Assembly: GCA_025455065.1 (NCBI GenBank)
Contig: JALONG010000043.1
Coordinates: 1 to 64,000, forward strand
DNA from: Candidatus Kapaibacterium sp.
GTDB taxonomy: Bacteria; Bacteroidota; Ignavibacteria; Kapaibacteriales; UBA4661
Length of the DNA: 64,000 nt
Direction of reading: 5' to 3'
Shown here: one piece after another, positions 37,449 through 50,679 of the stretch
Layout: each line of letters begins with the position of its first letter
Position numbering within the stretch: the stretch's first letter is position 1
Program-made: the position numbers and the translations under genes
The notes under the pieces: model-generated
Databases searched by the model: none
Told to the model about the DNA's origin: nothing
What the model saw: the letters and a program-made list of their open reading frames with translations, nothing else

Positions 37449-37470
37449 GAGTACGCCCGACAGGACTCGA
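37449..37470 (+). other. attL: displaced tRNA-Arg 3' end
   Basis: GAGTACGCCCGACAGGACTC plus GA, identical to the 3' end of the tRNA-Arg gene at 50603-50624. The match stops after 22 bases, where the tRNA continues ACCTGTT and this copy reads TATTTCC. It is the left junction of the element. Confidence 0.9.
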
Positions 37471-37592
37471 TATTTCCTGCCTTTCATAACTTTACATCTT
37501 CCTACAAAGCCGTAAGTTTTTGAAGAACAACAATATTTTCTTAGTTTGAAGAATATGAACAACCCTAAAAAACTATAAGAAAGCCTTATTTC

Positions 37593-37614
37593 TGCCCCCA
37601 ATTTTGCCCCCAAT
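37593..37614 (+). promoter_or_regulatory. paired TGCCCCCA sites, probable integrase arm sites (left)
   Basis: Two direct copies of TGCCCCCAAT 12 bp apart, directly abutting the integrase start codon and 123 bp inside attL. The same pair with the same spacing lies at 50530-50551, inside attR. Matching pairs near both ends are the hallmark of integrase arm-binding sites. Here they could also let the integrase repress its own gene. Confidence 0.65.
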
Positions 37615-38808
37615 ATGAAAGTTACCTTTGAATTGAGAAAACCACCCGACAAACACGGCAAATGCAGAATACGCGCCGTTGCGTGCTTTATGGGTAAACG
37701 AGTGCGCATAGCAACAGGAAACTACATAGCGGAAAAGAATTGGGATAAAACCAGTTACAAGGCAAAGCGAAATAGTGCCGATTCTGCCAGCATCAATGCC
37801 TCACTTGCCGATATTGAGGCACGGCTTTCGGAGTTATATCATAGGCATAAACACCTATTGACTGCGGAAATTATTCAGAATGCTTTCAAAGATGATAAAC
37901 CGCCTCTACAACATAATTTTTTTGAGATACTTGAAAAGTTTCTTGCCGTGTCTCCTTTTACTGAAAGTCGTAAAAACGGCTATCGTGCATTAGCAAGGCA
38001 TTTGAAGAGCTTTGAAACTGAATACCGCTATCCGATTACATTTGAAAGCATAACACAAGATTTTTATGACAAATTTCGTGAATATGCTCTGGCTATACCT
38101 CTGCAAAATAGTACCTTCGCAAGGTATATCAAAGCATTAAAGGCTTTTATGCGGTGGAGTAGTGAAACGTGGAACTACCACACAAACCTTGTGTTTAAGC
38201 GTTTCAAAGCTCCCAAAGAACAAAAAAAACACCAACTTTCCCTGACCGAAGAAGAGTTACTTGCCCTTGAAACACTTGACCTTTCAACACCTGACCTACA
38301 ACACCTCACAAAGAGCCGTGATGCCTTTCTTTTTGCCTGCTACACGGGTTTTCGGATTAGTGATGTGAAACAATTACAAGCTGCAAATATTCATAACAAC
38401 GAAATTAAAATTATTACAAAGAAAACAAAAGATGCTCTTACTATTGGATTCACCAATAAAACCCTTCCAATATGGGAGAAATACCAAGAAACAGGCTTAA
38501 TTGATATTGAAGAACAAACATTAAACAAGCATTTGAAGATTATTGGGCAAAAAGCAGGTCTGACAAATCCCATACAAGAACTGCTTGTATATGGTACGAT
38601 AACAGAGGCTAAGACCTACGAGCGGTGGGAATTTCTGAGTTTCCACGTTGCAAGGCGCACCTTTGCTACGTTGTCGTTTGCGCGAAACAAGATGACCGCA
38701 GAATCAATCATGCAGATTACAGGGCATAAAGACCTCAAAACATTCTACGCCTACATCAACTATACGCCTAAAATGGTCAATGACGAATATCAAAAAACAT
38801 GGAATTGA
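37615..38808 (+). CDS. int: tyrosine-family site-specific integrase
   Basis: 397-residue tyrosine recombinase. An N-terminal arm-binding domain (residues 1-80, basic, FELRKPPDKHGKCRIRAV) is followed by a core-binding SAM-like domain (about 95-195) and the catalytic domain. Catalytic residues are Arg about 247 (CYTGFRISD), His about 344 and Arg about 347 (FHVARRTFATL), His about 372 (ITGHKDLKT) and the Tyr in FYAYINY about 379. It should integrate and excise the element at tRNA-Arg. The start codon abuts the arm sites. Confidence 0.93.
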   Translation: MKVTFELRKPPDKHGKCRIRAVACFMGKRVRIATGNYIAEKNWDKTSYKAKRNSADSASINASLADIEARLSELYHRHKHLLTAEIIQNAFKDDKPPLQHNFFEILEKFLAVSPFTESRKNGYRALARHLKSFETEYRYPITFESITQDFYDKFREYALAIPLQNSTFARYIKALKAFMRWSSETWNYHTNLVFKRFKAPKEQKKHQLSLTEEELLALETLDLSTPDLQHLTKSRDAFLFACYTGFRISDVKQLQAANIHNNEIKIITKKTKDALTIGFTNKTLPIWEKYQETGLIDIEEQTLNKHLKIIGQKAGLTNPIQELLVYGTITEAKTYERWEFLSFHVARRTFATLSFARNKMTAESIMQITGHKDLKTFYAYINYTPKMVNDEYQKTWN

Positions 38809-38961
38809 TAAATTTGTTTCTTTCTATGGCTTTTGGTAAGTTTCTATGGCACTGCATCTCGCATACATTCCCACTATTCACTTACGCCGATGCAATTTGA
38901 TTCGTCGGTCATGCCCGAAAACCCGAAGCTACAACCCGCATAAAACCTTGTTTTTCAAACT

Positions 38962-39333
38962 ATGAAACAAATTCTTTTGACCAGAGCCGAAGAGAACGCA
39001 CAGGCGGCTTCGTTGCTGCTCCAAGCAGGACTTTACAACGCGAGTGCTAACCGTGCATACTACGCTGTTTTTCATGCGGCTGCGGCTTTTATCCTTGCTT
39101 ACGGAATGACTGTGGAGATTGACCACAGGAAAGTACAAGCACTCTTCAATAACGAGTTTATCAATCGTCGCAAGGTAATTCCCGCACAATTCAAAGGAAC
39201 ACTTGCCGAAATGCAAAAAATCAGGAACAATGCCGATTATGAAGCGGAAGGCGTAAGCAAAGCAAAAGCAACTGAGCAATTACGCCATGCAAATACTTTT
39301 TTGTCCATTATCAAAGAGAAAATAACGCTATGA
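38962..39333 (+). CDS. HEPN-domain protein, possible RNase toxin
   Basis: 123 residues, all-helical. The N-terminal block EENAQAASLLLQAGLYNASA then RAYYAVFHAAAAF is typical of HEPN proteins. The family active-site R..xxxH is in the RNNADYEA form, which is usual in the HEPN/nucleotidyltransferase-pair branch. Such proteins are RNases or structural toxins neutralised by a partner. It overlaps the next gene by four bases (ATGA). A role as toxin or defence effector is inferred. Confidence 0.78.
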   Translation: MKQILLTRAEENAQAASLLLQAGLYNASANRAYYAVFHAAAAFILAYGMTVEIDHRKVQALFNNEFINRRKVIPAQFKGTLAEMQKIRNNADYEAEGVSKAKATEQLRHANTFLSIIKEKITL

Positions 39334-39620
39334 ATACCAATGACCTCAACCTAAGATTTGACCTTGCACCCAAGCAAAAAGAACTTATTCAAGACCTATT
39401 TGGCAAGGTACAAGAACGCTATCCCGAAATTTCGTTTTTGCGACTTGGTACAAGCCCTGAAGACCGCGAACACATTTGGATTTACGTCTCTGCACCCATG
39501 CCCGAAGAGCGTGAAATCGAACTTTCCCGCTTTGCAAGCGAACTGGAAGCCGATATACTCACCGATTACGGGTATATGTTCTCTGTGATGACGAAAAATC
39601 CAACGCTGCAACCCGCATAA
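39330..39620 (+). CDS. HEPN partner protein, unknown family
   Basis: 96 residues, translationally coupled to the HEPN gene by an ATGA overlap. It contains EISFLRLGTSPEDREHIWIY and ASELEADILTDYGYMFSV. The strand-helix order and partner position recall a minimal nucleotidyltransferase antitoxin, but the GSxxxG and DxD motifs are absent, so it would be a degenerate or different fold. Function not established. Confidence 0.6.
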   Translation: MNTNDLNLRFDLAPKQKELIQDLFGKVQERYPEISFLRLGTSPEDREHIWIYVSAPMPEEREIELSRFASELEADILTDYGYMFSVMTKNPTLQPA

Positions 39621-39629
39621 ATACTCACT

Positions 39630-39893
39630 ATGAACTCCGTCAAAATCATTATAGAACAACGAAAAAAGGGCATTGTTGCTTATCCTGCCGATTTCGCTTC
39701 CCAAGAACTTATCGGCAAAGGTGCAACACCTACGGAGGCTCTTGAGCCAAAGGTAGGTGCAAAGTACAAAATGACCACAGAAGAAATCACCAAAATAGGA
39801 GAAGCCGCCGTAGAAGAGTTTCTCGCAGACATTACCCCCGAAGAACTCGCCAGATACAAATCATACAATCGTCGTGATGATGACGAGGACTAA
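39630..39893 (+). CDS. small protein resembling HicB-type antitoxins at its N-terminus
   Basis: 87 residues. The opening VKIIIEQRKKGIVAYPADF has the strand pattern of HicB/UPF0150 proteins (KVIVERHDDGFVAYP-like), and GATPTEALEPKVGA fits the following helix. The C-terminus is acidic (YNRRDDDED). No HicA toxin is adjacent. It sits nine bases behind the HEPN pair and may belong to that unit. Weak family call. Confidence 0.5.
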   Translation: MNSVKIIIEQRKKGIVAYPADFASQELIGKGATPTEALEPKVGAKYKMTTEEITKIGEAAVEEFLADITPEELARYKSYNRRDDDED

Positions 39894-39950
39894 GCAAACA
39901 CGAAAGCCGCGTAAAATCTTGTTTCTTAAAGTATGCAACATATCTACACA

Positions 39951-39988
39951 CAAAATCACCATGTTTTGCCGATATGGTGATTTTTTTT
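39951..39988 (+). terminator. rho-independent terminator
   Basis: AAAATCACCAT pairs with ATATGGTGATTTT around GTTTTGCCG, followed by a T run. It ends the HEPN module transcript. Confidence 0.85.
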
Positions 39989-40012
39989 GTGATTTTTCGA
40001 CACGTCCCTATA

Positions 40013-40146
40013 ATACCAATTTACGTTGAGGATTGTGCATTATTTTTTTTTAATGCTTTTCTCTGGAAGCAGCATAAATACTCGCATAGACAAGAATGTC
40101 TGTGCCAGTGAAGCCGAATTTTTTTTGCACAGTTATCAACTCAAAT
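40013..40146. repeat. dispersed palindromic repeat family A, long form, copy A6
   Basis: 134 bp nearly identical to A1 at 735-864. Here the ends are intact: ACCAATTT at the left and AAATTGGT (to 40151) at the right form a perfect 8-bp inverted repeat. The core GCATAGACAAGAATGTCTG is one base off the palindrome. It lies inside the integrative element, so the repeat moves between chromosome and element. Confidence 0.88.
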
Positions 40147-40180
40147 TGGTCTTTATTCAGTAACCTTACGAGATATTGCA

Positions 40181-41296
40181 ATGATAGTGATTCCTATTGA
40201 CGGAATAACCGAGTATGATGCTTTTGGAAGCATGAAAAAGTATTTTATCGAAATCCCTGAAATTTGCTTGGGAAACGAGGCAGTAATTGAGGCAAAGAAG
40301 CAGGAAGTTATTACACAATATGAGCGAGACAAGCAAGAAGCAGAACGGGAAAGAGCGCGTAAGGAAGCGCAGTATTTGCAAGATCTTGAAATAATTAACG
40401 AAAAGAACAGCAATAGCCATAATGATAACAAAACAGATACAATACAAAAAGTGGAGTTTGTAACCTCCGAGCAACTACAACGATTTTGGGACGCAAAGAC
40501 GACAGAACGTATGAAAGTTGTAAAATCTATTTTTACAGAGTTAGGTTATTCTGAACTCAATTTGCGGACTATTCCAATGGACTACGCAAGAGCCACACAT
40601 TACGATTACCTTATCAAGTGGCTTATTGAGCTATACTTACCATTTAAGCCTGACGAAAATTCTTGGAAGGATATTGATGATATTAGGGATGAGGCGGATA
40701 GAATTCTAAGTCATTTACAGCATCATCTTTTGAGCATTACGGATACAAATCAACAAGCTACGTTTCTCATGCACTTTTGGATAATTTTGCAGAATGGCGA
40801 CGATTACACTAGGGTAAAGAATGAATCCGCAATCAGATATATCGGCTATGTAATTACAAGTTATATTGGTAGGCTTTCAACCCGCAAAGGAATTTATGAT
40901 AGTAGATTTTCTCTTGAAGATTTACAGGTGAATCAAGGTATTGCAACGTTTGCACAGTTTATGGATGAAGTATTTGAAGATTCAGCCCCGCCAGACAACT
41001 TGATTTTGCAGTGGACTGGCACTGAATCACTTATCTATCGCCTTGCGTATGGATTTTTGTATTCAAACGAAATGGAACAGCATCGTGTGTGTATGCGGCA
41101 TGGTGATAATGCTCTGTTTATCAAAAGATTTGTAAAATTTTTCGGTATTCAAACAGACAATAGCGACCCCGCTAATAAAATTCAAAATTTACCCAAGTCC
41201 CCATTTAAAGCCCTTGAGGAAGGATTGGAAAACTACGAGGATAGTAAATCAAAAGGGAAAACTATGAAAGAAAAAGGTTCAAAATCAAGTAAATAA
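40181..41296 (+). CDS. protein of unknown function in the integrative element
   Basis: 371 residues with no family I recognise. Residues 35-90 are a charged Glu/Lys/Arg-rich coiled coil. The centre (100-330) is helical and acidic with many aromatic residues (YDYLIKWLIELYLPF, WIILQNGDDYTR), and the tail is Lys/Ser-rich (SKGKTMKEKGSKSSK). There is no signal peptide or membrane helix. It stands alone between repeat A6 and the HTH gene, a usual cargo position. Confidence 0.65.
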   Translation: MIVIPIDGITEYDAFGSMKKYFIEIPEICLGNEAVIEAKKQEVITQYERDKQEAERERARKEAQYLQDLEIINEKNSNSHNDNKTDTIQKVEFVTSEQLQRFWDAKTTERMKVVKSIFTELGYSELNLRTIPMDYARATHYDYLIKWLIELYLPFKPDENSWKDIDDIRDEADRILSHLQHHLLSITDTNQQATFLMHFWIILQNGDDYTRVKNESAIRYIGYVITSYIGRLSTRKGIYDSRFSLEDLQVNQGIATFAQFMDEVFEDSAPPDNLILQWTGTESLIYRLAYGFLYSNEMEQHRVCMRHGDNALFIKRFVKFFGIQTDNSDPANKIQNLPKSPFKALEEGLENYEDSKSKGKTMKEKGSKSSK

Positions 41297-41419
41297 GCTA
41301 TTTCGAGGATTCTTCTGTACATAGTTATTCATACCTATTAGCTTCAACTTTTCCTCTTTCGCATTTTTGTAACCAATAAGACGATCACACAATTTTTTCA
41401 CAGTCTATTGGAGACAATA

Positions 41420-41734
41420 ATGACACACGCAAGCGTTGTAATCGTTCCTTTGGAAGAACTCCAAACCATGATGACAGATATTGTGAACAATGCTGTTCGC
41501 AATATCGTACCAGACCGCCCCACAAGCCTCACACCCGATGAAGATTACCTAACCCGCGAAGAAACAGCAAAAATGCTGCGTATCTCCTTGCAAGGTTTGA
41601 CGAAGTACATGAGCGAAGGGCGTGTCCCCTTCCACAAACTTGGACGGCGCACCCTCTTCAAACGCAGCGAAGTAGAAAAAGCAATCTCCAAGCAAAAACC
41701 GCACGGCAACCGCACCAAAGCCGCCGCAAAGTAA
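41420..41734 (+). CDS. excisionase-family helix-turn-helix protein
   Basis: 104 residues from the ATG at 41420, which has GGAG seven bases upstream. The C-terminal half is an HTH_17/excisionase domain: DYLTREETAKMLRISLQGLT followed by KYMSEGRVPFHKLGRRTLFK and RSEVEKAI. Such proteins bend DNA at att sites to direct excision or act as local regulators. A basic Lys-rich tail follows. The role in this element's excision is inferred. Confidence 0.82.
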   Translation: MTHASVVIVPLEELQTMMTDIVNNAVRNIVPDRPTSLTPDEDYLTREETAKMLRISLQGLTKYMSEGRVPFHKLGRRTLFKRSEVEKAISKQKPHGNRTKAAAK

Positions 41735-41960
41735 TTTCCCAAAACTTTTTATCAACACTCCCACAACACACGCATTTACGCGCTGTGCAGGGGTTCTTTT
41801 TGCCTTTTTTACAAAAAAAACTATGCTCACCGATGCTTTCTGCTTGCGCACAAGCCCACAAAACGGTACTTTTGCAGTATCCCAAAACAAAACAGCGCAC
41901 CTAAACCGCCGCGCAGCGCGGTTTTCGTGTGTTCATACCATATTGCAAGCTAATCGAATT

Positions 41961-42038
41961 AGCCACAGACACGCCGCTATCCGTGAGGACGCGGGCAACC
42001 TTCTGTTTTGGGTTGGGATAAAGTCTGTGGCTTTTTTA
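41961..42038 (+). ncRNA. possible structured RNA leader ending in an intrinsic terminator
   Basis: AGCCACAGAC (41961) pairs perfectly with GTCTGTGGCT (42023-42032), followed by TTTTTATT. Inside are two more hairpins: CCGC-TA-TCC-GTGA-GGA-C-GCGG with a GNRA-type tetraloop, and CAACC...GGTTG. Together they make a three-way junction. It ends 26 bp before the next gene. It matches no riboswitch or ribozyme I know, so it may be an attenuator, a small RNA or a plain terminator. The rest of 41735-42064 has one GC hairpin at about 41911-41925 and no gene. Confidence 0.45.
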
Positions 42039-42064
42039 TTATCCATAATCAAAACAGGTGTTTT

Positions 42065-42355
42065 ATGAACCCCAACAACCATGCGCCCCGCAAGGCGCAA
42101 CCCGCCGCACAACCCCAACTGACACAATCCACGCTCCCAAACTCCTTTTGGGACGACCTCACGCCCGAAGAGAAGTGCGAAACCAAACTACAAATGCTCT
42201 CACTTGTCGTTGAGAGTGCTGCGGAGTTTCTTTTCGACCACCATTTGAAAGAGCCGTATGGTCAGGAATTAAGTAATTTACTTGGTTACACGTTGCTCGA
42301 ATACAAGGAAGCACTTGCCGACCTTGACAAAGCACGGAAAGCAGGTGTAGCATGA
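42065..42355 (+). CDS. small protein upstream of the primase gene
   Basis: 96 residues from the ATG at 42065, with AGGTG seven bases upstream. A Pro/Gln/Ala-rich lead (1-28) is followed by a helical domain (WDDLTPEEKCETKLQMLSLV to YKEALADLDKARKAG). Its end overlaps the primase start by four bases (ATGA), so the two are coupled. No family is recognised; a replication accessory role is a guess from position. Confidence 0.65.
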   Translation: MNPNNHAPRKAQPAAQPQLTQSTLPNSFWDDLTPEEKCETKLQMLSLVVESAAEFLFDHHLKEPYGQELSNLLGYTLLEYKEALADLDKARKAGVA

Positions 42356-44625
42356 GTAACCGTATAAAACCTAGCATCTTTGATGTACCTGTGTCTCAAT
42401 TCCGCTCTGCATCAGACAAAACACCGAAGCAAGTACATCTTTCTTCGATACTTCGAGAAATCAAAAGCAACAAATACCGCGTAGTTATTCAGTATTTACG
42501 CGGATTGGAAGAGGCACAATATGACGAAGAGAAAAAGCTACTTCCTGCCTTCACCGTTGCAGGAACATTCTACGAAGAGCGAAAAGCAAAGAATATTGAA
42601 CATCATAGCGGCTTTGCTGTTATTGATTTTGATGATATACCACATCTCGCCGATGCAAAATTTGCCCTGAAGCAAGACCGCCACACGGCGGCTTGTTTCC
42701 TATCTCCAAGTGGCAAAGGCTTGAAAGTGGTTGTGCGTGTCGTAGGAATCACCTCGCCTGAAGAGCATAAAGCACTATATGAGCCGCTTGCGACATATTA
42801 CCGCACCAAACATGGATTAAACCTCAGTCTTGATGAAAGCGGCAAGGATGTAAGCCGCCTCTGCTTCGTTTCATGGGATGCAGACTTGTATGTAAACGAA
42901 CAAGCGGAAATATTCTCTGTTGAGGGGGGAAGCCTGCCAACACATGAACAAAAACGCAACACAGCCCCTATAAGCGATTCTACAACAAAAACCGCAATCA
43001 ATACCAGACACACGCGAAAAATCGCTCTGAAGGCTCTGGAAAAAGCAAAAGAAGCTATTCGCAGCGCTCCCAAAGGCACACGCCACGAAACGCGGCTCAA
43101 ACATATTGAAACAGTCGGCGGCTACATTCAGATAAACGGCTTGACAGAAAGTGAGGTACGGGCTGAGTTACTCCCGATTGTGCGGGATTCGTCGGATTCC
43201 CCTGAAAGAGCAGAAAAAGAGTTTGAAGAATTTTTGATGTATGGCATTGAACACCCGATAGATATTGAGAATGAGGTTCGCAAACAGCGAGAATATGCGG
43301 CACGGAAGGAAACATACTCCAACGGAACAGAGCATAAAAAAAGCCCCGCCCCCAATAGGAGCGAAGCAGAAATATTTTCAATGCCACACGAAAATACGAA
43401 GCAAAGCGTTACGGAGCAAGGGGAAACAACGAAAAAGAAAAAATCTCGCGCAAACTCGACGCGCCAACAAACAAAGATTGATTTTGTCGAATCATGGCTT
43501 TCCGAGCGGTACGAGTTTAGGAATAATGCGATTTCGAGCGCATCGGAATTTCGGGCAAAAGGTGCAAAAGAATGGAAAACGATTGATGACCACTACCTTT
43601 CAAGCATCTGGCGAGCTATGGAAAAGAATGATGTGAAATTTTCGGAAAGTCGTCTCCAACGCTTGATTGTATCGGACTTTGCCGACTATTTTAACCCCTT
43701 CACCGATTACTTCACCACCCTTCCAGCGTGGGACGGAACGGAACGTATCTGTGAATATGCGGGGTTTGTACACGTGCTGGAAGAACAAACGGAAGTCTGG
43801 CAAAAATACTTTCGTCGTTGGTTACTCGCACTTGTCGCAACAGCCTTACAGCGTGGTCTCAATACCTCGTGTTTAGTGATTGTCGGAGCGCAGAACTTAG
43901 GCAAGAATACATACTTTCGCAATCTTATGCCAAGTGCCTTACAGACGTACTACCACTCAACGGCAGCAGATTTCAGCAATACCAACAACAAGGACGCAGA
44001 ATTTATGCTGACTTCCAATCTCGTATTGATGCTGGATGAGATGGAAAGCGTGAACAAAAAGGAAGTCGGTACGCTGAAAAGCCTTATCACACGCCCTGAA
44101 ATAAACGCCCGTCGCCCTTATGACCGCTTACCAAAGATTCTTCCGCGCTACGCCTCGTTTTGCGGCAGCGTCAATCACAGTAGCTTTTTAAGTGATTTGA
44201 CAGGCAGCCGCCGATTTCTTTGTGTGGAAGCGACGCGCATAGAATGGCATTCTCCCACTGACGAGTATTTGCACCAACTCTACGCCGAAGCCCTTCACGC
44301 ACTGGACACGGGCGAAACATTCAGTTTTTCGCTTGATGAAATTGCAGAAATCAATACAATGAATGAACAGTTTCAAGTAGCTTCTTCAGAGGTAGAGGAA
44401 ATTTTAGAGACCTTTGCGCCCATTGCAAAAAAGGATGCAAAAGCAGAGAATTTTTACACAACAAATCAGATAATGAAAAAACTTCAAGAGCGAAATCCAA
44501 ACTTCAAAACGGGAACAAAAACATTGGGAATTGCACTTGAAAAATGCGGTTTTGAAAAGGGTACAAAGCGCATCAATTCTAGTCCCGTGAAGTGCTATTT
44601 CGCTCAAATTGTACAAAGTGTGTAA
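42352..44625 (+). CDS. VirE/BT4734-type primase-helicase replication protein
   Basis: 757 residues. Residues about 20-150 match the VirE N-terminal/BT4734-like domain (GFAVIDFDDIPHLADAKFAL, SPSGKGLKVVVRV). Residues about 430-690 match the VirE (PF05272) ATPase, with P-loop GAQNLGKNTYF near 513 and Walker B LVLMLDEME near 558. The layout is that of plasmid or island primase-helicases that start replication at a nearby iteron origin. The iteron array begins 23 bp past its stop, supporting this. The usual GKT is GKN here. Confidence 0.88.
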   Translation: MSNRIKPSIFDVPVSQFRSASDKTPKQVHLSSILREIKSNKYRVVIQYLRGLEEAQYDEEKKLLPAFTVAGTFYEERKAKNIEHHSGFAVIDFDDIPHLADAKFALKQDRHTAACFLSPSGKGLKVVVRVVGITSPEEHKALYEPLATYYRTKHGLNLSLDESGKDVSRLCFVSWDADLYVNEQAEIFSVEGGSLPTHEQKRNTAPISDSTTKTAINTRHTRKIALKALEKAKEAIRSAPKGTRHETRLKHIETVGGYIQINGLTESEVRAELLPIVRDSSDSPERAEKEFEEFLMYGIEHPIDIENEVRKQREYAARKETYSNGTEHKKSPAPNRSEAEIFSMPHENTKQSVTEQGETTKKKKSRANSTRQQTKIDFVESWLSERYEFRNNAISSASEFRAKGAKEWKTIDDHYLSSIWRAMEKNDVKFSESRLQRLIVSDFADYFNPFTDYFTTLPAWDGTERICEYAGFVHVLEEQTEVWQKYFRRWLLALVATALQRGLNTSCLVIVGAQNLGKNTYFRNLMPSALQTYYHSTAADFSNTNNKDAEFMLTSNLVLMLDEMESVNKKEVGTLKSLITRPEINARRPYDRLPKILPRYASFCGSVNHSSFLSDLTGSRRFLCVEATRIEWHSPTDEYLHQLYAEALHALDTGETFSFSLDEIAEINTMNEQFQVASSEVEEILETFAPIAKKDAKAENFYTTNQIMKKLQERNPNFKTGTKTLGIALEKCGFEKGTKRINSSPVKCYFAQIVQSV

Positions 44626-44647
44626 AAAGTCTTGAAAAACGTTGTTT

Positions 44648-44969
44648 GAAGTTACTACGCTACTACAACGGCATTTAAGATATTTTATATCAGTAGTTTA
44701 CAGTGTAGTAACTTCCTCAAAAAACGAAATTACTACACTACGAAGTTACTACACGCATCATTGGCACAACGCAATTAGTCATAGCCCACGAAGTTACTAC
44801 ACGTTACTACAAAGTTACTACAATGGAAAATGTTTATACATATACACTTATGCTCTATTCTCTGTTGGGGTGTAGTAACTTCATTTTACCAAGTTACTAC
44901 CAAGTTACTACAATAGAAGTATATGTTTTTTCAATCTTTTGTAAGTTTTTTTAGTCTTGTAGTAACTTC
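44648..44969. repeat. iteron array, probable replication origin of the element
   Basis: About eleven copies of an 11-13-bp iteron, consensus GAAGTTACTACA. Direct copies start at 44648, 44726 (GAAATTACTAC), 44742, 44790, 44811, 44890 and 44901, a shorter ACGTTACTAC is at 44801, and inverted GTAGTAACTTC is at 44705, 44872 and 44959. Spacers are AT-rich. It lies immediately behind the primase-helicase gene and fills most of the gene-free 44626-45024. This is the plan of iteron origins in plasmids and phage satellites. Confidence 0.85.
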
Positions 44970-45024
44970 AAATTGATGTTTTAACCTTTTTTTTCTTTTC
45001 AAGCACACACTTTTACAGAGAATT

Positions 45025-45285
45025 ATGACTATCTCAGAATCACCCTCAAAACGCAAGCGTGTAACACCCTTCCGAAGAAGAGGCGACTTACAACGCTTTG
45101 CCGAAGAACATAATATGACCGTCCACATTATTCGGCGGCGCTGGAAAAACAACGATGCCGATGTTATCAAGAAAATAAAGCAATTCCTCAACCGCCAAGC
45201 CGTTGAGATGGCGATAATCCAACAAACTAAAGACAAATTGTTGAAAGAAGCCGCATTATATTCAAAGAAAGGACACAAACCATGA
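45025..45285 (+). CDS. small basic protein, possibly DNA-binding
   Basis: 86 residues, strongly basic (KRKRVTPFRRRG, IIRRRWKNN), helical. EEHNMTVHIIRRRWKNNDAD could be a helix-turn-helix. It follows the iteron array and overlaps the next gene by four bases (ATGA). No family is recognised. Confidence 0.6.
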   Translation: MTISESPSKRKRVTPFRRRGDLQRFAEEHNMTVHIIRRRWKNNDADVIKKIKQFLNRQAVEMAIIQQTKDKLLKEAALYSKKGHKP

Positions 45286-45827
45286 CCGGCAATCAATTCC
45301 GCCTTATTCGTAAAGCGAACAGTGTATCACAGGAAGCAATTTTCCAACGAATTGGCAAGGGTGATAGGAATAGCATCTACCGAGCCGAACATTTACCATA
45401 CGTCCCCCTATCGTTTATCCGTGCGCTAGGTGAGATTATCGGCGTAAACTTGACCAAAGCCGAAGAAGCAGAAAAATACATGAAGCAGCTTGGCGTAAAA
45501 CCGCCCCCTGAGATAGATGCAGTAGATTGGAAGCGTGTTTCCGACGAATACAACTGCACAGAGTTCAAGCATGAAAACCTCCTTATTGGTTATCGGCGCT
45601 GCTTTAACCGTGCTACGACACGCAGTGAATTTGTTGATATTCTGTTTCAAGCGCTGGAGCGTGGAGAATTGCGGCAAATTGCGCACGGAAACGGGATAAA
45701 ATATGTTATCAATGCTGTGATACCTGAAAATTCGGCGGAAACTCACAAAAAAACGGCTGTAAACCGCTCTAAAAAACCGAAAAACGGCACTTTTGAGGAA
45801 GAAAAAGACGATAATTTCGATGAATAA
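45282..45827 (+). CDS. XRE-like helix-turn-helix protein
   Basis: 181 residues. The N-terminal 60 (NQFRLIRKANSVSQEAIFQR, IGKGDRNSIYRAE, SFIRALGEIIGVNL) resemble a Cro/CI-type HTH. The rest is helical with a Lys-rich then acidic tail. Coupled to the preceding gene and next to the origin, it could control copy number or replication. That role is inferred from position. Confidence 0.65.
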   Translation: MTGNQFRLIRKANSVSQEAIFQRIGKGDRNSIYRAEHLPYVPLSFIRALGEIIGVNLTKAEEAEKYMKQLGVKPPPEIDAVDWKRVSDEYNCTEFKHENLLIGYRRCFNRATTRSEFVDILFQALERGELRQIAHGNGIKYVINAVIPENSAETHKKTAVNRSKKPKNGTFEEEKDDNFDE

Positions 45828-46114
45828 TGCTCGCCGTTGTTTCGTGGAGTATTTGCCGTTGTTTCGCTGTTGTTTCGTCAATGTTTGCCATGTATTTCCG
45901 TGATGTTCGCCGTTTCGCGCCAATGTTCACAAAAAGCCCGTTCGTGTGTTCGCTCATGCTCACCAAGCATGATGTTGAGAAAATAAGCGTCTTTTTTTGT
46001 CATGTTCGCTGAAACAAGGTATCACATAGGCTCTCTACGGCTCATTACATGAAATACAAGTGTCCAATTTTGTCATTTACCCTGTCCAATTTTGTCCAAT
46101 CCAGAGAAAAAGTC
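45828..46114. other. repeat-rich region without a convincing gene
   Basis: 45830-46010 carries at least six variants of GTTGTTTCG/TGTTCGC (for example CGCCGTTGTTTCG, TGATGTTCGCCG, CATGTTCGCTG). 46063-46100 has TGTCCAATTTTGTC twice. A 61-codon frame spans the first part but its composition follows the repeats. These could be protein-binding arrays for the element's regulators. Confidence 0.45.
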
Positions 46115-46474
46115 ATGTCCACGAACCGCAACGACCGTTATTCTGAGGATGACCGCAGGTTATATAACCAGCATTATTACTCAACCCACAGAGAAAAACT
46201 CAATCGTAACCGCAATAAACGGAGGGCTTCATGCAAAATACGCCCACATTCACGCCGTGTAATTCTCGCAACGCAGATACCTTCTGAAGTGCTTGAAATC
46301 TTGGCTTCGTGGGTATGCGACGGCTCAGACGACGAGATTACTATTTCGTCCGTTCTGAGCAAAAGCCAAGTTCGACGGGCTTTGTCCGCACAGGCGCGTG
46401 AAATCGTGTTCCGTAACGTTGTAGTTTTTGACAATACCGCTCAAAACAGCCCAAAACAAAACGAAGGAATATAA
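46115..46474 (+). CDS. small basic protein of unknown function
   Basis: 119 residues from the ATG at 46115 (MSTNRNDRYSEDD); the frame extends 22 codons upstream through repeats. The N-terminal half is Arg/Asn-rich (REKLNRNRNKRRASCKIR). The C-terminal half holds a helical segment with a possible RHH-like strand (RRVILATQIPSEVLEILASW). It may bind nucleic acid. No family is recognised. Confidence 0.5.
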   Translation: MSTNRNDRYSEDDRRLYNQHYYSTHREKLNRNRNKRRASCKIRPHSRRVILATQIPSEVLEILASWVCDGSDDEITISSVLSKSQVRRALSAQAREIVFRNVVVFDNTAQNSPKQNEGI

Positions 46475-46550
46475 TATTATTGGTAATAATTTGCCCCAAA
46501 CACAGCGCAAAATCTAGGCGCGATTACCGTTTCACTTTTTCAGTTTTATC

Positions 46551-46850
46551 ATGGCTAAAACACATTCCGTACAAGTCCCCGTAACATCGGACGAATACAA
46601 AACAATCCGCAAAGCCGCTTCCGAACATGGAATGTCGGCACGAGAATACGCAAAAGAGCGACTGCTAGGCACTAATACACCGTCACAGTCTCTTGTACAA
46701 CAGCCTTCATCGGCAGTGGACTATTCTATTACACAGGGACAACCCACGAACATCTACATTGAGAACGCAACACTCAATCTGCCCGCCGGGACACGCATTG
46801 TTGCGCCGAACATTGATACGATTATCGAAGACCGCAACGGAAAGCGTTAA
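46551..46850 (+). CDS. MobC/ribbon-helix-helix-like protein
   Basis: 99 residues. The N-terminal half, SVQVPVTSDEYKTIRKAASE, HGMSAREYAKERLLG, has the strand-helix-helix pattern of MobC-type relaxosome accessory and RHH proteins. The C-terminal half is a low-complexity linker ending in IVAPNIDTIIEDRNGKR. A relaxase would be expected nearby if this is MobC, but none is seen. A plain RHH regulator is the alternative. Confidence 0.55.
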   Translation: MAKTHSVQVPVTSDEYKTIRKAASEHGMSAREYAKERLLGTNTPSQSLVQQPSSAVDYSITQGQPTNIYIENATLNLPAGTRIVAPNIDTIIEDRNGKR

Positions 46851-46873
46851 GCCGCTTTCCGCCGTTTTTCCCA

Positions 46874-46910
46874 ACCGCTTAGAGGCTGGCACTCTCAAGC
46901 GGTTTTTTTA
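46874..46910 (+). terminator. rho-independent terminator
   Basis: AACCGCTT-AGAG pairs with CTCT-AAGCGGTT and is followed by TTTTTTT. It ends transcription behind the MobC-like gene. Confidence 0.88.
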
Positions 46911-46931
46911 TGACTAATCACTCACAACACC

Positions 46932-47915
46932 ATGAATACACAACAAGTACAAGACCTAATCCGCCGCATAGCCCGTGAAGAGAATGTAAATGCGGACTAT
47001 ATGCTCAAAGTCGCAGCTATCGAATCGGAATTTAATCCCGAAGCCTTCAATCCCAGAAGCGGCGCGGCTGGGCTGTTTCAAATCCTGCCCATGAACAAGG
47101 TACAAGACGTGTTCAACCCTGAAGTAAACACGCGCTGGACGGCAAAATTTACTCGTGAAAACGCACAACATCTTAACCGCAAAGGGATTCCCGTCAATGA
47201 AGAGACGCTCTACTTGGCTCACCAGCAAGGCAGAGAAGGCGCATCAATCATCTGGAATGCCCTGCAAAGCGGCAAGAATATCAATAATCTTCCCCCGCAA
47301 ATAGAGCGCAATGTCAATGCCAACAACCCGCGCCGTTACACGTCGTTGCGGGATTGGTACGAGTTCTGGGCAAACAAAATGCGTTCAATGCCGAATCCTT
47401 CCGAAAATCCGCTTGCGTACAGTGGACGCGGTAACACGCCGAATAATGCTCCGACTAGGCTTCCAAGCGGCAGCACAGGCAGAAATCCGAGTGGAAATCA
47501 AGGCGGTTATTCCAATAATTCGCCGAATACGCTTCCCACAGCCAGAAACACAGGCACAGGCTCACAATACGGGCAAAATCGCAATACTATTCCCTACGGC
47601 GGCAATAATGGAAATAATCCAGATAGAAGCGGCTACGGAAGCGGTTATGATAATGGCAATGGCTACGGTGGTTATGAGAATGACTATGGAAACGGTTACG
47701 GGAATGGTTATGGTTATGGAGACGACGATAATAATCTCTACCCCTCACAGAGAACTACTCAGGAAGCCGATTCAGGCAGTGGTGTAGGCGGTTTGCTATT
47801 TTTGGGAGCGTTGGGAGGTTTAATCTATGCGTTTTTTAACAGCAAAGAAGAGCGAAAGCCGCAGAAATACATGATTTCTATCAAAGTTAATGAAGAAGAA
47901 AAGCAAGAGGTGTAA
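46932..47915 (+). CDS. lytic transglycosylase with Gly/Asn/Tyr-rich linker and C-terminal anchor
   Basis: 327 residues. Residues 3-150 are an SLT domain: LKVAAIESEFNPEAFNP with catalytic Glu31, then GAAGLFQILPMN. Residues about 165-280 are a Gly/Asn/Tyr-rich, probably disordered linker. Residues about 288-305 (GGLLFLGALGGLIYAFF) form a membrane helix, with a short charged tail. There is no N-terminal signal, so export would be tail-anchored or unconventional. Such enzymes open peptidoglycan for conjugation machines or act as phage-type lysins. No other transfer gene is present. Confidence 0.8.
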   Translation: MNTQQVQDLIRRIAREENVNADYMLKVAAIESEFNPEAFNPRSGAAGLFQILPMNKVQDVFNPEVNTRWTAKFTRENAQHLNRKGIPVNEETLYLAHQQGREGASIIWNALQSGKNINNLPPQIERNVNANNPRRYTSLRDWYEFWANKMRSMPNPSENPLAYSGRGNTPNNAPTRLPSGSTGRNPSGNQGGYSNNSPNTLPTARNTGTGSQYGQNRNTIPYGGNNGNNPDRSGYGSGYDNGNGYGGYENDYGNGYGNGYGYGDDDNNLYPSQRTTQEADSGSGVGGLLFLGALGGLIYAFFNSKEERKPQKYMISIKVNEEEKQEV

Positions 47916-47917
47916 CG

Positions 47918-48394
47918 ATGACATTTTTGATTGCGATAATCTTTTTCTTTGCTTCATTGACACAAGCGCAAGAGCCGCGTAGCGCCGAATTATGGTATCA
48001 AGAAGGGGTGCGATTATGCCGCAGCACTTCCACCAATCTTGATGAAGCGTTAAAAGCCTTTGATACGGCTTTAATCCTCAATCCTCGCCTTTCTGCCGAT
48101 GTGTACAAATGGCGTTCTTGGGTGAGACAAAAGAAGGGTGATATGCACGGTGCGCTTGATGACATAAACCAAGCAATCACGATGAACACACGAAACGGAA
48201 GGCTCTATGCTGTCCGAGCCGATTTGAGGCGACAAATGCACGATTTGGCAGAAGCAATCTACGATTATGCCATAGCATTGCAGTTGGCAGAAACAGACGA
48301 AGATGTGAAAGTGTACAAAATACTCCGTGATAGCTGCATTACTGAGCAAGATTCCCTTGTTGCAAGCACTAAGCGTAGCAACAAAAGCAGATGA
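47918..48394 (+). CDS. exported TPR protein
   Basis: 158 residues. A signal peptide (LIAIIFFFASLTQAQ) is followed by about three tetratricopeptide repeats (AELWYQEGVRLCRS, ALKAFDTALILNPRLS, ALDDINQAITMNTRNG, LAEAIYDYAIALQL). TPRs mediate protein binding in the periplasm. It starts two bases after the transglycosylase stop, so the two are likely one unit. Confidence 0.75.
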   Translation: MTFLIAIIFFFASLTQAQEPRSAELWYQEGVRLCRSTSTNLDEALKAFDTALILNPRLSADVYKWRSWVRQKKGDMHGALDDINQAITMNTRNGRLYAVRADLRRQMHDLAEAIYDYAIALQLAETDEDVKVYKILRDSCITEQDSLVASTKRSNKSR

Positions 48395-48424
48395 TTTCTA
48401 TGATATGGATTTTTCAAATAACAA

Positions 48425-48461
48425 AGCCGCATAAACTGAGTGTTTATGCGGCTTCTTTTTG
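48425..48461 (+). terminator. terminator, left copy flanking the cargo operon
   Basis: AGCCGCATAAACTGAGTGTT runs to TATGCGGCTTCTTTTT: a perfect stem AGCCGCATAAAC/GTTTATGCGGCT with a short loop and T tail. The same 37 bases occur with one change at 50422-50458, in the same orientation. It ends the TPR transcript and meets the end of the leftward cargo operon. Confidence 0.9.
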
Positions 48462-48477
48462 TGCTTTTGGGTAATGA

Positions 48478-49149
48478 TTATTTTGATTGTTTGTATAACC
48501 TACCGTCATTTATTGCTTGATTGATAATTTTGGCATTTGTCGTAAAAAGATGCACGTCGGTAAAATTGTAAAAATCACCATCATTCGAGAAGATATACTT
48601 GTTCGATGCTTCCACGTGGCGCACAATGGCGTACAAGGCAAAATCACCAAAATCTACTTCGGAACTCATTTCTCGAACATTTAGGTTTTGTGGAGTGTCG
48701 AGTTTGTAGATAGGAAATTTTTTATCAAATGTTTCGGTGAATCTTTTGATTTGCAGATTCCATCCATGAGCAAAATCAGGGTCGTTTTGTCGAAGCTCCT
48801 TAAAATAATCCGTTTTGAAGGGTATATCTTTCTGGTTGTAGCTACGAAAGAAGCCATGTTGAATATGCTTGTAATACTCAATCGCGGTAGACAGTGTGCT
48901 ATACGCAACAATACCAGAGCCTTTCAGGGCATTAACGGCACGTTCAATTGTTTCTACTCTACGTTTTATCTCGGCACTATCCAACGAGCGCGAGAATTGG
49001 TCTCGAAAATCAATGAGGATATTGGTATCTGCAAAAAAAGCCTTGCAACCAAGATGGTTACAAAGCTCTTTGACCTTGCCAGATGCTTCGGGTGAAAATT
49101 CCCGTGCATCTATCACCACACCTTTTTCAGACAGGGATTCTTGTTGCAT
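48478..49149 (-). CDS. PIN-fold nuclease, third gene of the cargo operon
   Basis: 223 residues. A lead of about 35 residues precedes a PIN domain: CKAFFADTNILIDFRD with Asp41, Glu91 in TAIEYYKH, Asp166/Asp169 in VDFGDFAL, and FSNDGDFYNF with Asp190/Asp192. All acidic positions of a metal-dependent RNase are present. It overlaps the STAS gene by 23 bases, so expression is coupled. Its neighbours suggest an RNase effector held by a GHKL/STAS switch; that is inference. No RHH antitoxin is adjacent. Confidence 0.78.
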   Translation of the reverse strand: MQQESLSEKGVVIDAREFSPEASGKVKELCNHLGCKAFFADTNILIDFRDQFSRSLDSAEIKRRVETIERAVNALKGSGIVAYSTLSTAIEYYKHIQHGFFRSYNQKDIPFKTDYFKELRQNDPDFAHGWNLQIKRFTETFDKKFPIYKLDTPQNLNVREMSSEVDFGDFALYAIVRHVEASNKYIFSNDGDFYNFTDVHLFTTNAKIINQAINDGRLYKQSK

Positions 49150-49483
49150 AAAATTCTTCTGTATTTATATTGTTTGCTAAGAGATTACGGCGCTGTTGTA
49201 CGTTAAACAAGCAAAGTTCTAATTCTTCTGCATCATCTTCGCTCAAGCCTTGTATTTTGATGTTCTTACCAAAATCATCGTGATTCCACGCTTCTTCAAT
49301 GCAAAGCGCACCAAAGGCATAGTTGAAAAAAGTGCTGGAAATAAACTGATAGCCTGTAAAATCAACAGCAACAAAAGGGAAAGACTCCAAAGCCTTTATT
49401 ATGGCTAATTTGAGGGTTTCACCTTTCTCGGAAGCAAGCAAAACAGGGCTTCCTACTATGTTAAGAACATGGAGAGCTTGCAT
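49127..49483 (-). CDS. STAS-like DUF4325 protein, second gene of the cargo operon
   Basis: 118 residues. FVAVDFTGYQFISSTFFNYA gives the STAS-like strand-helix with Ser49/Ser50 where anti-sigma antagonists carry their phosphorylated Ser. DUF4325 proteins are commonly found beside GHKL ATPases, as here: the ATPase gene ends five bases upstream. By analogy with SpoIIAA/SpoIIAB it may be the phosphorylation or binding partner of the ATPase. That role is inferred. Confidence 0.75.
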   Translation of the reverse strand: MQALHVLNIVGSPVLLASEKGETLKLAIIKALESFPFVAVDFTGYQFISSTFFNYAFGALCIEEAWNHDDFGKNIKIQGLSEDDAEELELCLFNVQQRRNLLANNINTEEFYATRIPV

Positions 49484-49488
49484 ATGGT

Positions 49489-50319
49489 TTACGATTGGTG
49501 TTTATAGGAATATGACAGTGAGGTTTGACGGACTTTGATACTGACCAGCGTACCATGCAGAAAATGTTGAAGGGCTTTACATTGCGGTTCTTGATTGCCT
49601 TGTCTTTCATAGTATCCATTTCCAGAAGCAATTTGGAGAAATCCATTGTTGATTCCAAGAAATTTCTGCAATAAAAATAATCCCATGCCTCCAGATTCTT
49701 TCGATGGTCTTGTAGTTGTACCGCTTCGTAATGCCCATTCAATACAACCAGCATCCGAATCAATACGTTCTCCATAGTTCCGTACGTTCTGCGGAATTCC
49801 AACTCCTGCATCATAAAAGGCAATTTCAAAAGTTTTTTTTTGAGGGAACAGTTGCCCGAAAACACTAACTCCATGAGATGAATGACTATGTACCATCCCG
49901 TTATGAACTATTTCATACACTTTCTTCACCATATCCCTTTCGAGTTCAGAAGTAAAATTAGGAAAATGTACCATTACTTGCTCTCGTACCCAAGCCAAAA
50001 CAATTTCATCGTCTCTGCGATTGGTAAATGCTTTTAATCCTGTTCTACGCCGTCTATCAAAAGGCGAAAAGTGTGTCGGAGCGTTTGGAGCAAGGAATTC
50101 AAAGCCGGCATCACGCAAATAAGTGTTTACTGTTGGATTTGATAAATACAAGGATTTTGGTCGTGATTGTGTACGAAACTGTTGGTCGAGGAATACTACA
50201 CAAATTGGGCGAAGGAATTCGCTTACTAATTCGACTGTCTCACTTGTAGTTGCGTTTAAGTGCTGACCAAATTGACCCAGAAAATTCACCGCTTCATAGG
50301 ATAAATCAAAATATTTCAT
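49489..50319 (-). CDS. GHKL/HATPase-fold protein, first gene of the cargo operon
   Basis: 276 residues. The C-terminal GHKL domain has an N-box VKKVYEIVHNGMVHS (Glu136, Asn140), G1 box YDAGVGIP (Asp170), G2 box ESGGMGLFLLQKF near 208-220, and the closing HGTLVSIKV near 255. The N-terminal 110 residues are unassigned and may be the sensor. There is no histidine-kinase dimerisation helix or phosphoacceptor His motif, so it resembles an anti-sigma-type Ser kinase or a bare ATPase. It leads the operon with the STAS and PIN genes. Confidence 0.78.
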   Translation of the reverse strand: MKYFDLSYEAVNFLGQFGQHLNATTSETVELVSEFLRPICVVFLDQQFRTQSRPKSLYLSNPTVNTYLRDAGFEFLAPNAPTHFSPFDRRRRTGLKAFTNRRDDEIVLAWVREQVMVHFPNFTSELERDMVKKVYEIVHNGMVHSHSSHGVSVFGQLFPQKKTFEIAFYDAGVGIPQNVRNYGERIDSDAGCIEWALRSGTTTRPSKESGGMGLFLLQKFLGINNGFLQIASGNGYYERQGNQEPQCKALQHFLHGTLVSIKVRQTSLSYSYKHQS

Positions 50320-50421
50320 ACATTTCAGTAGTTCACACGTTTATTGTATTGATTATTTTCAACAACAGGTTATCAATTTCATGCGAAATCACACTAGCTC
50401 AGTAAGTAGTATCGTAGAAAA

Positions 50422-50458
50422 GCCGCATAAACGGAGTGTTTATGCGGCTTCTTTTTTC
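50422..50458 (+). terminator. terminator, right copy flanking the cargo operon
   Basis: Same sequence as 48425-48461 except one loop base (AAACGGAG for AAACTGAG), same orientation, 1,997 bp away. No rightward gene ends here, so a terminator in this direction has nothing of its own to stop. It is best explained as a duplication that accompanied insertion of the cargo. It could block read-through into the cargo's upstream region. Confidence 0.8.
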
Positions 50459-50529
50459 GCTTTTTCCAGAGGGATTATTTTGATACAGTAATTTCACCTT
50501 TCAGAAAATAGCATTGAAAGATAAAAAAC

Positions 50530-50551
50530 TGCCCCCAAATTTGCCCCCAAT
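50530..50551 (+). promoter_or_regulatory. paired TGCCCCCA sites, probable integrase arm sites (right)
   Basis: TGCCCCCAAATTTGCCCCCA: two direct copies 12 bp apart, 53 bp inside attR, matching the pair at 37593-37614 in sequence, spacing and orientation. Confidence 0.65.
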
Positions 50552-50602
50552 TCTAAAGTTTATTTACTAAAGAATTGAAAAACAAAGAACTCTTGAAAGG
50601 AA

Positions 50603-50624
50603 GAGTACGCCCGACAGGACTCGA
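50603..50624 (+). other. attR within tRNA-Arg
   Basis: 22 bases identical to attL at 37449-37470. They cover the acceptor 3' strand and most of the T-arm of tRNA-Arg, the usual crossover zone for tRNA-targeting integrases. Confidence 0.9.
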
Positions 50625-50679
50625 ACCTGTTACCCACAGCTTAGAAGGCTGTTGCTCTATCCAGATGAGCTACGGGCGC
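50606..50679 (-). tRNA. tRNA-Arg (anticodon UCU)
   Basis: 74-nt tRNA read on the minus strand: acceptor GCGCCCG pairs with CGGGCGT (one G-U), D-arm GCTC...GAGC, anticodon stem ACAGC/GCTGT with loop CTTCTAA (anticodon TCT), T-arm ACAGG-TTCGAGT-CCTGT, discriminator A. No CCA is encoded. Its 3' end is the integration site of the element, which restores the gene. Confidence 0.95.

What the first reader, a model, noticed from the sequence alone, without database searches (positions are those of the whole stretch)
49127..50319. GHKL ATPase plus STAS-like DUF4325 plus PIN nuclease: candidate new switch-controlled RNase system
Seen: three leftward genes (with PIN at 48478-49149) spaced by 5 bp and a 23-bp overlap: a GHKL fold with intact N, G1 and G2 boxes but no His-kinase helix, a DUF4325 protein with Ser in the STAS position, and a PIN domain with all acidic residues. 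They sit as cargo at the end of an integrative element, a usual place for defence genes. Known: GHKL/STAS pairs act as partner switches (SpoIIAB/SpoIIAA). Inference: the switch restrains a PIN RNase and releases it on a signal such as phage infection. I know no described system with this trio.
Basis: partly seen in the sequence, partly recalled or inferred. Interest (0 to 1): 0.85.

Follow-up and report, generated by a model that had tools for sequence, protein, structure and literature searches.

The report
Divergent VapKSC kinase-switched RNase toxin operon
Three genes on a mobile element encode a kinase, a molecular clamp and an RNA-cutting toxin that the kinase probably unleashes when DNA is damaged, for example by a phage; this is a distant branch of the VapKSC system published in June 2026, so it is real but no longer new.

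Summary
Window 50319-48478 (- strand) holds an intact three-gene operon: GHKL kinase, DUF4325/STAS protein, PIN nuclease, with a 5-bp gap and a 23-bp overlap. The trio is conserved: in all 34 loci examined the PIN gene lies directly downstream of the STAS gene, and the kinase precedes it in 31. It occurs in Ignavibacteria/Bacteroidota, a Deinococcus plasmid, a Streptococcus prophage and E. coli.

It is not new. Chambers et al. (EMBO J, June 2026, PMC13373217) named it VapKSC, with a crystal structure (9z7o), toxin-antitoxin assays and about 2-log protection against phage Bas42. Profiles built only from the window's branch find 9z7o as best PDB match (VapS E 1.6e-10; VapC E 8e-4). Phospho-acceptor, PIN and kinase residues align. 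The window belongs to a divergent branch (100/100 support in the kinase tree).

Two additions. The operon is terminal cargo of a 13.2-kb tRNA-Arg element (22-bp att repeats at 37449 and 50603). In relatives it often sits directly behind restriction-modification genes (5 of 8 testable loci of its branch), suggesting that restriction may help to trigger it. That coupling is inference.

The parts
49489..50319 (-). VapK-like kinase (N-terminal region in the STAS position of VapK, then GHKL domain), 276 aa
   Evidence: Model pLDDT 77.9, pTM 0.82. Best Foldseek match SpoIIAB; VIA-align top nine all Ser-kinase anti-sigma factors, Z 8.6-10.4. E136, N140, H144, D170, G172, G211 and G213 in 15/15 homologues.
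49127..49483 (-). VapS-like antitoxin: STAS/DUF4325 domain with Ser50 and a C-terminal tail of about 25 aa, 118 aa
   Evidence: Pfam PF14213. Branch-only profile finds only Escherichia VapS 9z7o_A in PDB at E<=0.1, E 1.6e-10. Ser50 aligns with VapS Ser48; S or T in 17/17.
48478..49149 (-). VapC-like PIN-domain RNase toxin, 223 aa (start codon uncertain: ATG 49149 or GTG 49119)
   Evidence: Branch-only profile finds Escherichia VapC 9z7o_C, E 8.1e-4, over nearly the whole domain. All PIN acidic residues invariant in 17/17; Asp41 aligns with VapC Asp28.
48423..48460 (.). terminator-like hairpin downstream of vapC, near-identical copy of the upstream one
   Evidence: direct read and repeat scan
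50419..50456 (.). terminator-like hairpin upstream of vapK; with the downstream copy it brackets the operon
   Evidence: direct read and repeat scan
50603..50624 (+). att copy of the integrative element, overlapping the 3' end of tRNA-Arg (tRNA at 50605-50679, - strand)
   Evidence: 22-bp exact repeat GAGTACGCCCGACAGGACTCGA; tRNA
37449..37470 (+). other att copy of the 13.2-kb element
   Evidence: same 22-bp repeat
37615..38808 (+). tyrosine-recombinase-like integrase of the element, just inside the left att copy
   Evidence: ORF of 397 aa with integrase-like sequence, read by eye; not scanned against a family library

Best explanation
The operon is a divergent member of VapKSC. At rest the STAS protein VapS binds the PIN toxin VapC and its C-terminal tail keeps RNA out of the active site. 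A DNA-damage signal, probably single-stranded DNA produced during phage infection, DNA repair or restriction, activates the kinase VapK. VapK phosphorylates VapS on Ser50, VapS lets go, and free VapC cuts host RNA and stops growth, which limits phage spread. The steps VapS-VapC complex, antitoxin activity, loss of binding by the phosphomimic and phage protection were shown experimentally for the Escherichia homologue (PMC13373217). ssDNA activation was shown for the related kinase CapK and only modelled for VapK. For the window's branch every step is inferred from homology and conserved residues.
For: Same gene order in all complete loci. Branch-only VapS and VapC profiles have Escherichia VapS and VapC (9z7o) as their best PDB match. 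Catalytic residues of kinase and PIN are invariant and Ser/Thr at the phospho-site is 17/17. The kinase model resembles SpoIIAB, UsfX and RsbW best. Kinase, STAS and PIN trees show the same two-branch split, with the window and L059 as sisters in all three, so the trio moves as a unit. Mobile or defence settings: integrative element, Streptococcus prophage Javan172, Deinococcus plasmid, prophage end in E. coli, restriction operons. In L126 nearly the whole kinase gene is deleted while vapS-vapC is intact, and in L047 the kinase and the catalytic N-terminus of VapC are lost while VapS remains, as expected if VapS is the antitoxin and VapK the trigger.
Against: The branch is distant: about 16-24% identity to E. 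coli VapC and VapS, and branch-to-branch VapC hhalign gives only 46.6% probability over the C-terminal part. The VapC model of the window is unreliable. The VapS tail differs in sequence between branches. ssDNA sensing is untested in this branch and was not shown biochemically for any VapK.
Confidence: 0.87

Rival explanations
1. Restriction-coupled fail-safe: in this branch the trio works mainly as a second layer behind a restriction-modification system, fired by DNA ends or ssDNA made by the restriction enzyme or by a disturbed enzyme, in the manner of the PrrC anticodon nuclease behind a type I enzyme.
For: Directly upstream genes on the same strand: type I M+S (L046), type I R (L045), type IIG with 4-bp overlap (L060), type IIG two genes up (L124), DNA methylase plus DUF3800 (L059), i.e. 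5 of 8 testable loci of the branch, plus a SIR2 defence gene in L123. Canonical branch: hsdM-S (L056), hsdR-M-S (L125), type III res/mod (L141).
Against: The window copy has no restriction gene upstream (tRNA instead) and prophage copies have none. VapKSC alone protected an E. coli strain lacking restriction systems (PMC13373217). Three of the eight loci are from one genus. Shared defence-island location would give the same pattern.
Confidence: 0.3
2. Plain addiction module: a VapBC-like toxin-antitoxin that stabilises the mobile element, with the kinase as a regulator and phage defence incidental.
For: Position on integrative element, plasmid and prophages. VapS alone neutralises VapC in Escherichia (PMC13373217). 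L126 keeps vapS-vapC without the kinase.
Against: The kinase is intact in nearly all loci, which addiction alone does not need; the Escherichia operon protects against a phage and needs the kinase's putative ssDNA site.
Confidence: 0.15
3. A separate switch with a different trigger, unrelated to ssDNA, that shares only domain types with VapKSC.
For: Low identity between branches; long branch separating them.
Against: Best PDB matches are VapS and VapC themselves; an aromatic residue (F or W) at window Phe35 is kept in 15/15 kinases of both branches, a candidate for the ssDNA-contacting F54/W68.
Confidence: 0.08

Closest known systems
VapKSC (Chambers et al., EMBO J 2026, PMC13373217; PDB 9z7o)
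   Same: Gene order, GHKL kinase without HTH, STAS protein with Ser/Thr and C-terminal tail, PIN toxin with the same catalytic residues, defence and mobile setting
   Different: About 16-27% identity to the E. coli proteins; separate well-supported branch; different VapS tail sequence; not individually recognised by the Pfam PIN model, unlike canonical VapC
CapK/CapS (Chambers et al. 2026)
   Same: GHKL kinase plus STAS substrate with conserved Ser
   Different: CapK has an N-terminal HTH and CapS a DNA-binding wHTH that represses an immune operon; here no HTH in either protein and the target is a PIN protein
SpoIIAB/SpoIIAA and RsbW/RsbV partner switches
   Same: GHKL Ser-kinase fold (best structural match) and a STAS domain with Ser at the phospho-site
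   Different: No sigma factor; regulated partner is a nuclease
VapBC toxin-antitoxin
   Same: PIN-domain toxin held by an adjacent antitoxin
   Different: Antitoxin is a STAS protein, released by phosphorylation, not a DNA-binding VapB

Membership tests
VapKSC | Three-gene operon in the order kinase, STAS, PIN | tested here: met
   conserved in relatives
VapKSC | VapS: STAS domain homologous to Escherichia VapS with Ser/Thr at the Ser48 position | tested here: met
   Profile match to 9z7o_A, E 1.6e-10; Ser50 aligned, S/T 17/17
VapKSC | VapS C-terminal tail reaching the VapC active site | tested here: inconclusive
   A tail of similar length is present with its own conserved ending, but sequence differs; no complex was modelled
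VapKSC | VapC: PIN nuclease homologous to Escherichia VapC with Asp28 | tested here: met
   Profile match to 9z7o_C, E 8.1e-4; Asp41 aligned with Asp28, six acidic residues 17/17. De novo model poor
VapKSC | VapK: GHKL Ser-kinase domain with intact catalytic residues | tested here: met
VapKSC | VapK: N-terminal STAS domain | tested here: inconclusive
   Canonical VapK profile matches STAS structures (1sbo E 4.9e-4); the window's N-terminus aligns with it and is modelled as alternating helices and strands, but was not matched to a STAS fold directly
VapKSC | VapK aromatic residue for ssDNA (F54) | tested here: inconclusive
   Phe35 column is F or W in 15/15, but the published protein's own sequence and numbering were not at hand
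VapKSC | VapC toxicity, VapS antitoxin action, phage protection | not testable with these tools
   needs experiment
CapK/CapS | HTH on kinase and wHTH on STAS protein | tested here: not met
   Proteins of 276 and 118 aa with no HTH among Pfam hits; the STAS protein has no room for a wHTH
VapBC | Small DNA-binding VapB antitoxin next to vapC | tested here: not met
   Neighbour is DUF4325/STAS

The most novel reading that the evidence does not exclude
This branch of VapKSC is a dedicated second stage of restriction-modification: DNA cleavage by the linked restriction enzyme produces the signal that releases the RNase, so restriction and growth arrest form one graded response.
Probability: 0.25. 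Interest if true: 0.6.

Novelty: new member of a known kind. Interest (0 to 1): 0.38.

Why it matters
It extends a newly described phage-responsive kinase/toxin switch to a deeply divergent branch in the Ignavibacteria/Bacteroidota group, and shows it as cargo of an integrative element. The repeated placement behind type I, IIG and III restriction genes gives a direct, testable link between restriction and growth arrest. The published paper raised that link for the related CapK/CapS regulators, and for VapKSC reported only that 36% lie within 10 kb of an immune gene.

Tried and rejected
Single-protein searches of Pfam, NCBIfam, PADLOC, PDB, plasmids and phages with the window's PIN protein found no credible relative, and a viral-contig scan confirmed none; branch profiles were needed. 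PADLOC's DrmA hit to the kinase reflects only the shared GHKL domain (inference). The AlphaFold model of VapC (4-row alignment) is too poor to use and was not searched. A three-way search of papers for STAS-like, GHKL and PIN found nothing; the key paper came from a two-of-three search. DefensePredictor's PIN systems (PMC13092281) are one- and two-gene systems of other composition. 'Categorically new system' was rejected. Using E. coli as a centre for the genome search was not possible. VIA-align rows cover mainly residues 90-271, so the kinase's N-terminus is barely tested by fold.

Full report
What is there. The minus strand from 50319 to 48478 carries three intact, tightly packed genes. The first encodes a 276-aa protein with a GHKL domain, the second a 118-aa DUF4325 (STAS-like) protein, the third a 223-aa protein with all PIN acidic residues. 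The 23-bp overlap depends on the start codon chosen; relatives begin about eight residues later. Near-identical terminator-like hairpins bracket the operon (48423-48460 and 50419-50456).

Mobile context. A 22-bp repeat at 37449-37470 and 50603-50624, the second copy lying in the 3' end of a tRNA-Arg gene, bounds a 13.2-kb element with an integrase-like ORF just inside the left end, a VapE/primase-like gene, a NikA-like mobilisation protein and a lytic transglycosylase. The trio is the last cargo before the tRNA. Only two of eight genomes of the genus carry it, at 44-50% protein identity and in different settings, which fits horizontal transfer.

Conservation. Searching for the PIN protein, for its profile or for DUF4325 in relatives gave loci that were read out with their neighbours. 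Across 34 loci with the PIN gene, counting the E. coli one from its annotation, the STAS gene is always directly upstream; the kinase precedes it in 31. The three exceptions are a contig end (L041), a kinase deletion with vapS-vapC intact (L126), and a decayed locus that lost the kinase and the N-terminal half of the PIN protein but kept the STAS gene (L047). Some weaker PIN matches (for example L116, L118 and L119) were not fetched with their surroundings. The trio also occurs in Streptococcus phage Javan172, on Deinococcus gobiensis plasmid P5, where NCBI already labels the genes ATP-binding, STAS-like and PIN, and at a prophage end in E. coli JNE25-001.

It is a described system. A literature search led to Chambers et al., EMBO J, 9 June 2026 (PMC13373217), who define VapKSC: VapK (STAS-GHKL kinase), VapS (STAS plus short C-terminal region) and VapC (PIN). 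They report 289 loci, 36% within 10 kb of an immune gene; a VapS2VapC2 crystal structure; VapC toxicity abolished by D28A; neutralisation by VapS, lost with S48E or without the C-terminal region; and about 2-log protection against phage Bas42 that needs VapC D28, VapS S48 and VapK F54. ssDNA activation was shown biochemically for the related CapK, and modelled for VapK. It is the only held paper that uses the name.

Is the window a member? A VapS profile made only from the window's branch finds Escherichia VapS (9z7o_A) as its only PDB match at E<=0.1, with E 1.6e-10, and places Ser50 on Ser48. A VapC profile from the same branch has Escherichia VapC (9z7o_C) as best match at E 8.1e-4, the next being about 1, and places Asp41 on Asp28. 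Across both branches the kinase residues, the Ser/Thr and all six PIN acidic residues are kept. The kinase model (pLDDT 77.9) has SpoIIAB as best Foldseek match, and the top nine VIA-align rows are Ser-kinase anti-sigma factors SpoIIAB, UsfX and RsbW. The branches are far apart: support 100/100 for the split in the kinase tree, 99/99 in the PIN tree, 86/79 in the STAS tree. I therefore file it as a divergent member. The N-terminal STAS fold of this kinase, the aromatic ssDNA contact and the action of the VapS tail remain inconclusive.

Restriction neighbours. Of eight loci of the window's branch with a readable gene upstream of the kinase, five have restriction-modification genes in the first two positions (L046 type I M and S; L045 type I R; L060 type IIG overlapping by 4 bp; L124 type IIG; L059 DNA methylase behind DUF3800), one has a SIR2 defence gene (L123), and two, including the window, have none. 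In the canonical branch the same holds for L056, L125 and its near relatives, and L141. The loci are few and partly from one genus, and no matched background was computed, so this supports an association and not a mechanism. The paper discusses restriction upstream of CapK/CapS and proposes that restriction-made DNA damage may activate it; extending that to VapKSC is inference.

Verdict. The finding is a new, divergent member of a known kind, of moderate interest for its branch, its mobile setting and its restriction linkage.

Noticed in passing
window 37449-50624: 13.2-kb integrative element at tRNA-Arg with 22-bp att repeats, integrase-like ORF, VapE/primase, NikA-like mobilisation protein and lytic transglycosylase.
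   Followed up: partly
window 48423-48460 and 50419-50456: Near-identical terminator-like hairpins in direct orientation bracket the operon, as if it were an insulated or exchangeable cassette.
   Followed up: no
L043:6003-6882, L044:4875-6893, L048:4944-6896, L053:4840-6762: DUF4325-type genes followed by a 182-204 aa protein with N-terminal hydrophobic stretches and no Pfam match, in three loci after a larger GHKL-like protein; possibly a membrane-effector relative of VapKSC/CapKS that I did not find described.
   Followed up: partly
L040:3896-6158: PIN_8 protein (326 aa, Pfam E 1.5e-55) upstream of a GHKL protein and a STAS-like protein: a different PIN family joined to a similar switch.
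   Followed up: partly
L039:2411-6020: Trio preceded by an AAA ATPase and a DUF4276 protein (PADLOC HEC-01A/HEC-01B), apparently in one operon.
   Followed up: partly
L126:1624-2845: Nearly complete deletion of vapK with vapS and vapC intact, behind hsdR-M-S; natural support for VapS being sufficient to hold VapC.
   Followed up: yes
L089:4494-5683 (CP147646.1, Streptococcus agalactiae): GHKL plus STAS-like pair without a PIN gene at the lysin-paratox end of a prophage-like region.
   Followed up: no
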